From: Gammaproteobacteria bacterium
Lineage (GTDB): Bacteria > Pseudomonadota > Gammaproteobacteria > Pseudomonadales > Pseudohongiellaceae
Assembly: GCA_029244985.1 (NCBI GenBank)
Contig: JAQWQD010000070.1
Location: forward strand, 1-64,000
Direction: 5' to 3'
DNA: 64,000 nt
The notes beneath the pieces are model-generated. The model made no database searches. It was not told the DNA's origin and saw only the letters and a list, made by a program, of their open reading frames with translations. Position 1 is the first letter of the stretch. The number at the start of each line of letters is the position of its first letter. Positions 62,811 through 64,000 of the stretch are shown one piece after another. The position numbers were made by a program, and so were the translations under genes.

Positions 62811-63356
62811 ATGAATTGGGCTAATCTAGCAACATATTTGCGCATACTTCTAATTCCAGTTGTAATTGCCTGTTTTCACTCGACGTTTCCCTCCGCAAAT
62901 ATATGGGCTGCTATCTTGTTTTCTGTCGCCAGTGCGACTGATTGGCTGGACGGTTTCTTAGCGAGGAAGTTAGATCAAGGTTCAGAGTTCGGAGCATTCT
63001 TAGACCCAGTGGCTGATAAGTTATTAGTGACCGTGATTTTAATCATGTTAGTCGCATCCTATCCGGTATTGCTGTTTGCTACGGCAGTCATCATTACCCG
63101 GGAATTATTGATCTCAGCATTACGAGAATGGATGGCAGGGAAAGGTAATCGCGGAGTTGTCGAAGTGGCATTTTCTGGAAAACTGAAAACCACTGTACAA
63201 ATGATAGCCATTATCGCCTTACTGTTAGCTAACGACGATTATCCGAGGTGGATTTGGGATGTTGGTTTTTATGCCCTACATTTTGCAGCCCTTCTTAGCG
63301 TATACTCAATGTTGCTATATTTCAAAAATGCTTGGGATTTCTTAAGAGAGGAATGA
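62811..63356 (+). CDS. pgsA: CDP-diacylglycerol-glycerol-3-phosphate 3-phosphatidyltransferase
   Basis: CDP-alcohol phosphotransferase motif DWLDGFLARKLDQGSEFGAFLDPVADK; uvrC-pgsA-tRNA order as in E. coli. Confidence 0.95.
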   Translation: MNWANLATYLRILLIPVVIACFHSTFPSANIWAAILFSVASATDWLDGFLARKLDQGSEFGAFLDPVADKLLVTVILIMLVASYPVLLFATAVIITRELLISALREWMAGKGNRGVVEVAFSGKLKTTVQMIAIIALLLANDDYPRWIWDVGFYALHFAALLSVYSMLLYFKNAWDFLREE

Positions 63357-63478: not shown

Positions 63479-63554
<76 letters not shown>

Positions 63555-63650: not shown

Positions 63651-63724
63651 GGCTGGGTGGCAGAGTGGTTATGCAGCGGACTGCAACTCCGTGTACGCCG
63701 GTTCGATTCCGACCCCAGCCTCCA
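63651..63724 (+). tRNA. tRNA-Cys(GCA)
   Basis: GGCTGGG...CCCAGCC acceptor stem, CTGCAAC anticodon loop, GGTTCGATTCC T-arm, encoded CCA. Confidence 0.97.
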
Positions 63725-63757: not shown

Positions 63758-63802
63758 GCCCGGGTGGCGAAATTGGTAGACGCAAGGGACTTAAAATCCC
63801 TA
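63758..63802 (+). pseudogene. 5' part of tRNA-Leu(UAA), truncated after the anticodon stem
   Basis: GCCCGGG acceptor 5' strand, D-arm GCGAAATTGGTAGACGC, anticodon arm AGGGA-CTTAAAA-TCCCT; no T-arm (GGTTCGA) and no CCCGGGC acceptor 3' strand in the remaining ~200 bp. Confidence 0.88.
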
Positions 63803-63854
63803 AGTGGTCCCCGTGGTTAGTGCCTTACAGCGATACTGTCACCCTTATTGCCCC

Positions 63855-63891
63855 CCCTAGCGTCCTGTTACAATCATTAAGAATGCTAGGG
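63855..63891. repeat. Inverted repeat CCCTAGC...GCTAGGG downstream of the truncated tRNA-Leu
   Basis: 7 bp perfect arms separated by 23 bp. Confidence 0.4.
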
Positions 63892-64000
63892 AGTATGATC
63901 TCAGTAACACGAATAGAAATGGTGCCTTTGTCTAGATAAACAGGCATATCCTTTGAGTAAATAAATTACCAAGTTAGTGAATTAATCAATAATTTGCTCA

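What the first reader, a model, noticed from the sequence alone, without database searches (positions are those of the whole stretch)
63758..63830. Broken tRNA-Leu(UAA) gene at the leuZ position: probable edge of an integrated element
The acceptor 5' strand, D-arm and full anticodon arm (AGGGACTTAAAATCCCT) are present. The sequence then becomes AAGTGGTCCCCGTGGTTAGTGCC..., with no recognisable long variable arm, no GGTTCGA T-loop, and no CCCGGGC/CCA 3' end before the window ends. The two upstream tRNAs (Gly-GCC, Cys-GCA) are perfect, and the order uvrC-pgsA-tRNA-Gly-Cys-Leu matches E. coli pgsA-glyW-cysT-leuZ. An intact tRNA-Leu(UAA) is therefore expected here. The break lies just 3' of the anticodon stem-loop, a known crossover sublocation for tyrosine integrases in tRNA genes. 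Most such elements restore the tRNA; this one apparently does not, so the UUA decoder must come from another copy or from the element. A group I intron is less likely because the anticodon loop is uninterrupted.
Basis: partly seen in the sequence, partly recalled or inferred. Interest (0 to 1): 0.75.

Follow-up and report, generated by a model that had tools for sequence, protein, structure and literature searches.

The report
Integrase-less DNA insert splitting tRNA-Leu
The broken leucine tRNA gene at the window's edge is the left scar of a 4-kb inserted DNA element that carries no recombination enzyme of its own and rebuilds a complete tRNA gene at its other end; related species have similar inserts at the same gene, so this is an unusual form of a known way that bacteria gain genes.

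Summary
Window 63758-63801 is nt 1-44 of tRNA-Leu(UAA) in the ancestral Gly-Cys-Leu slot, and it is not a gene. The main inference drawn from it is wrong: the tRNA is restored. The contig continues to 67932, and the genome's only intact tRNA-Leu(UAA) lies at C69:67832-67918, 4074 bp downstream, 44/44 identical over the repeat. Between the copies are a Ser/Thr kinase, a 771-aa secreted protein and conserved end sequences, but no integrase. The crossover maps to the anticodon arm (nt 39 or earlier to 46). The element supplies the tRNA's 5' half and its upstream DNA, the rarer polarity (159 of 3919 islands in Islander). The same anatomy occurs in species G034, G099, G092 and (rearranged) G071, twice in tandem in G034 and G099, with different cargo each time. 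One G099 unit keeps an integrase remnant whose nearest relative (49% identity) is the integrase of a prophage in G075 at the same tRNA. Both share 12-13-bp-spaced TGTNACC repeats at their ends. Contigs of G072 and G020 end exactly at Leu nt 46, suggesting polymorphic populations. Best reading: a decayed or helper-dependent integrative element of the CIME / additive-island kind.

The parts
63479..63554 (+). tRNA-Gly(GCC), intact, upstream neighbour
   Evidence: ARAGORN
63651..63724 (+). tRNA-Cys(GCA), intact, upstream neighbour
   Evidence: ARAGORN
63758..63801 (+). attL: chromosomal 5' half of tRNA-Leu(UAA) (nt 1-44), displaced and non-functional; direct repeat of C69:67832-67875, 4074 bp away
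63802..63881 (+). element left end (LE): degenerate continuation (own AAGTGGTCCCCGTGGTTAGTG, cf. CCGNAGTGAANCCGCGTATTTAGTG in G099 and G071), one TGTCACC arm-like site at 63837-63843, CCTAGCGTCCT at 63856-63866
63882..64000 (+). element interior as far as the window edge. Outside the window on C69: Ser/Thr kinase ORF 64016-64969, internal RE/LE-like junction about 65132-65198, 771-aa secreted ORF 65271-67586, right end (RE) 67734-67831, intact tRNA-Leu(UAA) 67832-67918
62811..63356 (+). pgsA, conserved marker of the locus used to anchor the comparison

Best explanation
A tyrosine-integrase-type element is integrated in the single tRNA-Leu(UAA) gene at its anticodon arm. [quoted passage not shown] Recombination in the anticodon loop left the chromosomal 5' half joined to LE (63758 onward, broken) and joined the element's RE + 5' half to the chromosomal 3' half (67832-67918, intact). 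The element has no integrase now: it has either decayed to cargo plus att sites (CIME-like) or moves with an integrase supplied in trans. An internal RE-LE junction suggests that two units accreted (kinase unit, then 771-aa unit). Shown: the repeat, the restored tRNA, conserved ends, tandem copies and different cargo in relatives, and an integrase remnant in one unit. Inferred: the circular intermediate, the crossover base, promoter function of RE, order of insertion, helper.
For: Intact tRNA-Leu(UAA) at C69:67832-67918 with a 44-bp perfect direct repeat, the only intact UAA gene in the assembly apart from the 141-nt contig-overlap copy on C30. Same anatomy in other species of the genus: G034 (two fragments + intact), G099 (two fragments + intact, a tandem of two units), G092, and rearranged G071. 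A conserved RE block CCTTATAATTCCATTTGGATCTCTACAG..CATAA..ACTGA abuts the Leu copy at the element's right end in carriers and is absent from inspected spacers of intact loci. Repeat identity ends at nt 39 to 46, bracketing the anticodon loop. Integrase remnant inside the LE of G099 unit 1, 49% identical over 105 aa to the G075 prophage integrase at the same tRNA-Leu, reciprocal best for this region within the genus. Exact tandem TGTNACC sites at G099 LE and RE and at both ends of the G075 prophage; none in the 64-kb window; single TGTNACC at all three own ends against 3.4% of random windows.
Against: No integrase in the 4-kb element, and none related to the G099/G075 type anywhere in the bin. 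LE is weakly conserved, and the internal junction lacks a tRNA fragment, so two units is less certain than one. The consensus scan found no sigma-70 promoter in RE. It is a MAG whose contig ends 14 nt past the restored tRNA.
Confidence: 0.88

Rival explanations
1. Helper-dependent cassette rather than decayed relic: these are non-autonomous cargo units still moved by an integrase from a resident prophage or another strain, and they accumulate at tRNA-Leu(UAA) much like integron cassettes.
For: Single- or two-gene cargo, different in each species, all with both ends; shared arm-like repeats with the G075 prophage ends; 44/44 identity of own repeats suggests a recent event; contigs of G072 and G020 end exactly at Leu nt 46, in G072 with a 141-nt overlap to the intact continuation, as expected if a mixed population carries filled and empty sites.
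Against: No helper integrase found in own, G034 or G026; other carriers show decayed fragments and an integrase pseudogene, which fits relics. No circular form or excision seen.
Confidence: 0.3
2. Ordinary duplication: tRNA-Leu was duplicated by homologous or illegitimate recombination, and one copy decayed from its 3' end.
For: Fragment positions in G034 show scattered decay.
Against: Own identity is 44/44 and then stops abruptly; break points in different species fall at the same place (nt 39-46); the same RE block and LE motif recur; tandem units and an integrase remnant are present.
Confidence: 0.06
3. Assembly artefact: a chimeric contig joins the tRNA 5' half to foreign DNA.
For: MAG assembly; the contig breaks nearby and the C69/C30 link rests on a 141-nt k-mer overlap.
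Against: The break at 63802 is inside a contig with 4.1 kb on its right side, of similar GC (0.41 against 0.43), ending in an intact tRNA-Leu; four other genomes show the same anatomy.
Confidence: 0.03
4. Split or intron-containing tRNA (group I intron or trans-spliced halves).
For: tRNA-Leu(UAA) is a classic group I intron host (own knowledge).
Against: A complete, uninterrupted tRNA-Leu(UAA) is present; Rfam finds only tRNAs in the region; the anticodon loop is uninterrupted in both copies.
Confidence: 0.01

Closest known systems
tDNA genomic islands with a displaced 5' fragment (Islander, PMC4383910)
   Same: Intact tDNA and tDNA fragment in the same orientation with the island between; anticodon-centred site; 159 of 3919 Islander islands leave a 5' fragment.
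   Different: Islander requires an integrase in the island; this one has none, and related loci hold tandem units without intact integrases.
CIMEs, cis-mobilizable elements (PMC5704250)
   Same: Retain attL and attR, have lost integration and transfer genes, occur in tandem accretions.
   Different: CIMEs are defined as relics of ICEs or IMEs; here the only integrase relative found is a prophage integrase, and cis-mobilization is untested.
Additive flexible genomic islands with cassettes separated by partial tRNA repeats (PMC7771536 Actinomarinales, PMC10872708 Methylopumilus, PMC5217437 Alteromonas)
   Same: Small variable cassettes at a tRNA hotspot, marked by partial tRNA repeats.
   Different: Where the fragment is specified (Methylopumilus, last 20 bp of tRNA-Lys; Alteromonas, 3' end of tRNA-Met) it is the 3' end; here it is the 5' half and the element replaces the upstream region of the tRNA.
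pTN3-type archaeal integrase sites (PMC8371274)
   Same: attB is the 5' half of a tRNA gene.
   Different: Archaeal, with the integrase encoded by the element.
Prophage of G075 at tRNA-Leu(UAA) (L063/L064)
   Same: Same target, same anticodon-loop region, integrase related to the G099 remnant, similar TGTNACC repeats at both ends.
   Different: 47-kb prophage that supplies the 3' half, leaving a 3' fragment downstream, and has its own integrase.

Membership tests
tDNA genomic island (Islander definition) | Intact tDNA plus a cognate fragment, same orientation, element between | tested here: met
tDNA genomic island (Islander definition) | 5' fragment upstream of the intact tDNA (configuration filter) | tested here: met
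   63758 fragment, 67832 intact, both + strand
tDNA genomic island (Islander definition) | Integrase gene within the island | tested here: not met
   ORFs 64016-67586 are a kinase and a 771-aa protein; the only PF00589 match in the genome is on C54
CIME | Retains attL and attR flanking cargo | tested here: met
   LE and RE with 44-bp repeat
CIME | No integration or transfer genes | tested here: met
CIME | Derived from an ICE/IME and mobilizable in cis | not testable with these tools
   Needs excision or transfer assays; the one integrase relative found is in a prophage
Additive flexible genomic island | Tandem cassettes separated by partial tRNA copies | tested here: inconclusive
   Clear in G034 and G099; in own genome the internal junction has RE/LE sequence but no tRNA fragment
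Additive flexible genomic island | Variable cargo at the same locus among relatives | tested here: met
   kinase/771 aa (own), membrane protein/arylsulfotransferase (G034, the latter also G026), GST-like and others (G099)
Integron cassette array | IntI integrase near the array | tested here: not met
   No integrase near; the genome's single tyrosine recombinase is an orphan next to prc on C54
Integron cassette array | attC sites | not tested
   Only looked at by eye; no attC model was run
Tycheposon | tRNA border with a tyrosine recombinase in the element | tested here: not met
   No recombinase in the element
Group I intron of tRNA-Leu(UAA) | Intron interrupting the anticodon loop of one gene | tested here: not met
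   Uninterrupted intact gene; Rfam shows tRNAs only

The most novel reading that the evidence does not exclude
Probability: 0.25. Interest if true: 0.6.

Novelty: new member of a known kind. Interest (0 to 1): 0.36.

Why it matters
It explains an apparently missing essential tRNA gene and adds an integrase-less example to the rarer class of tRNA islands that replace the 5' half, and with it the upstream DNA, of their target. If the units prove mobile in trans, this would be a cassette-capture system anchored on an essential tRNA, and it would allow a test of how insertion alters expression of that tRNA. A tool that requires an integrase or a 3' fragment will miss such elements.

Tried and rejected
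Looked for an integrase inside the element and in the genome: one orphan recombinase next to prc, also present in seven other genus members inspected (no full-length match in G071 or G026), so not specific to carriers. Searched RE in 343 genomes of the order: no convincing carrier outside the genus; the best outside match (E 2.5e-5) lies inside a protein-coding gene (chorismate-synthase-like) of G259 and is taken as chance, a reminder that short-match E-values are optimistic. Searched IMG/VR with the RE block and the G075 integrase: nothing; a 14-nt LE pattern gave 28 matches that were not followed, as too short. The 38-kb gap between tRNA-Cys and tRNA-Leu in complete genome G077 was fetched but its content was not analysed; its tyrosine-recombinase matches lie outside the gap. 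tRNA-Cys 5' fragments proved to be a different phenomenon.

Full report
WHAT IS THERE. The window is the first 64000 bases of contig C69 (67932 bp) of a 3.20-Mb, 76-contig genome (contig length). ARAGORN finds tRNA-Gly and tRNA-Cys but no tRNA-Leu in the window. At 63758-63801 the first 44 nt of tRNA-Leu(UAA) are present exactly (48/50 over 50 nt), then the sequence departs. The spacer between tRNA-Cys and this fragment is 33 nt; in the intact-gene relatives listed it is mostly 17-53 nt (two outliers at 83 and 113). So the fragment occupies the ancestral slot.

WHERE THE REST IS. Beyond the window edge the contig holds an intact tRNA-Leu(UAA) at C69:67832-67918. The two copies form a 51-nt direct repeat at 96% identity, 4074 bp apart, perfect over the first 44 nt of the tRNA. 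Apart from this gene (seen again on C30 because C69 and C30 share an exact 141-nt end), no other intact UAA gene was found in the assembly.

WHAT LIES BETWEEN. The 4.03 kb between the repeats holds a 317-aa Ser/Thr kinase (Pfam Pkinase E 6e-42; PADLOC PD-T4-6 models up to E 3e-66, which may reflect only a general kinase match) and a 771-aa protein with a likely signal peptide, an HEMIHLWD motif and a weak MopE-type motif. No integrase, excisionase or transfer gene was found. GC is 0.41 against 0.43 for the window. The stretch before the intact tRNA (RE, 67734-67831) and the stretch after the fragment (LE) contain TGTCACC sites; an internal stretch near C69:65132-65198 looks like RE joined to LE, matching own RE at 84% over 31 nt and G099 LE at 82% over 50 nt. 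The simplest reading is two accreted units, with the internal tRNA fragment lost.

RELATED LOCI. A search of the Gly-Cys-Leu cluster in 61 genus genomes and RE and LE searches in 84 found the same design. G034: fragments of nt 1-46 and 1-38, then an intact gene, with a membrane protein and an arylsulfotransferase + DUF3303-like protein as cargo. G099: two fragments (nt 1-42) with end sequences and an intact gene at the end, a clear tandem of two units of about 2.2 and 2.7 kb. G092: one fragment, a cargo remnant, RE and an intact gene. G071: a fragment and RE next to each other, no intact gene seen. G026 holds the G034 arylsulfotransferase unit without a visible fragment. No convincing carrier outside the genus was found among 343 sampled genomes of the order.

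POLARITY AND CROSSOVER. In carriers the upstream copy is the broken 5' half and the downstream copy is whole, with the RE block CCTTATAATTCCATTTGGATCTCTACAG..CATAA..ACTGA directly before the right-hand copy, while spacers of intact loci lack it. Hence the element brings RE and the 5' half, and the chromosome supplies the 3' half. Identity ends at nt 39 (G099 unit 1, G071), 42 (G099 unit 2), 44 (own) or 46 (G034 unit 1), so the exchange was at or before nt 39, that is in the anticodon loop CTTAAAA (inference). This is a recognised sublocation: Islander counts 2083 anticodon-centred sites, and 159 islands with a 5' fragment against 3760 with a 3' fragment (PMC4383910).

THE RECOMBINASE. Own genome has one PF00589 match, a 409-aa orphan next to prc that is also present, at 401-421 aa, in G034, G099, G072, G020, G077, G025 and G012, so it is not specific to carriers. 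In G099 unit 1 a decayed integrase C-terminus (VRLHDLRQTFASW, one stop) lies inside LE, pointing at the att site. Its best relative in the genus is a 313-aa integrase in G075 (49% over 105 aa, E 1e-32 in the pairwise comparison; next best in the genus search E 6e-8) that lies about 90 bp 3' of G075's intact tRNA-Leu(UAA), also pointing at it. The match is reciprocal for this region. In G075 the 3' fragment (nt 26-87) lies 47 kb away beside virion-protein and HNH genes, so that element is a prophage of the ordinary polarity at the same site. Both ends of the G075 prophage and the sampled LE and RE of G099 carry two TGTNACC sites 12-13 bp apart; such tandems do not occur in the 64-kb window, and single sites occur in 3.4% of random 130-nt stretches but in all three own ends. 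I take these as arm-type integrase sites; this is inference.

MOBILE OR RELIC. Contig C29 of G072 ends exactly at Leu nt 46 and overlaps by 141 nt the contig that continues into an intact tRNA-Leu; contig C87 of G020 also ends at Leu nt 46. A de Bruijn assembly breaks so when a third sequence diverges there, which suggests filled and empty alleles in those populations. Own C69/C30 also join by 141 nt next to the restored tRNA. Against this, fragments in G034 are decayed, the G099 integrase is broken, and no helper was found in own bin. I give about 0.3 to current mobility in trans and more to relics.

COMPARISON. Integrase-less elements with both att sites in tandem are known as CIMEs (PMC5704250). 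Cassettes at tRNA genes marked by partial tRNA repeats are known as additive flexible islands (PMC7771536, PMC10872708, PMC5217437). The combination here, cargo-only tandem units of 5'-half polarity, was not found described in the papers searched, but each feature is known. I file it as a new member of a known kind.

LIMITS. All genomes except a few are drafts; no reads were available; RE promoter function rests on conservation only (a consensus scan found none); the order of insertion and the circular form are inferred.

Noticed in passing
L062 3043-2960 and 3266 on (G012, minus strand); L063 2106 on; L065 1168 on; L075 2702 on; L311-L315: A 75-100 nt multi-hairpin element (AAGCTGC..GCAGCGCAGAC..CCCGnAGGG..CGAATC) sits in the T-loop of duplicated tRNA 5' fragments: tRNA-Cys in four genomes (twice in tandem in G012) and tRNA-Arg(ACG) in G012. 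Further copies lie just 3' of tRNA-Arg or near tRNA-Phe. It folds with z = -3.5 and has no Rfam match. Absent from own genome by the pattern used. Possibly a miniature tRNA-targeting repeat.
   Followed up: partly
G000, G077, G104, G025, G012, G075, G072, G027, G029, G101: No XerC/XerD match above the XerD cut-off in ten near-complete genomes of the genus, two of them single-contig; an orphan recombinase of about 400 aa next to prc recurs instead. Its role in chromosome dimer resolution is an open question.
   Followed up: partly
L172 10232-11407 (G092): A 391-aa tyrosine integrase starts 110 nt 3' of the restored tRNA-Leu, so in G092 elements of both polarities seem to sit at the same tRNA gene.
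   Followed up: partly
L005 2272-2650 (N-terminus of the 771-aa protein): The N-terminal domain of about 120 aa recurs in otherwise different proteins in many genus members; the cargo remnant of G092 looks similar by eye.
   Followed up: no
L066 3337-3273 and 13207-13121 (G025); L070 177-122 (G076): Classic 3' fragments of the same tRNA-Leu(UAA): a 10-kb element in G025 and a very short insert in G076, with TGTAGRC direct repeats.
   Followed up: partly
L081/L071 (G023, UBA7449): tRNA-Gly and tRNA-Leu appear split in this public MAG, but the gaps are runs of N.
   Followed up: yes
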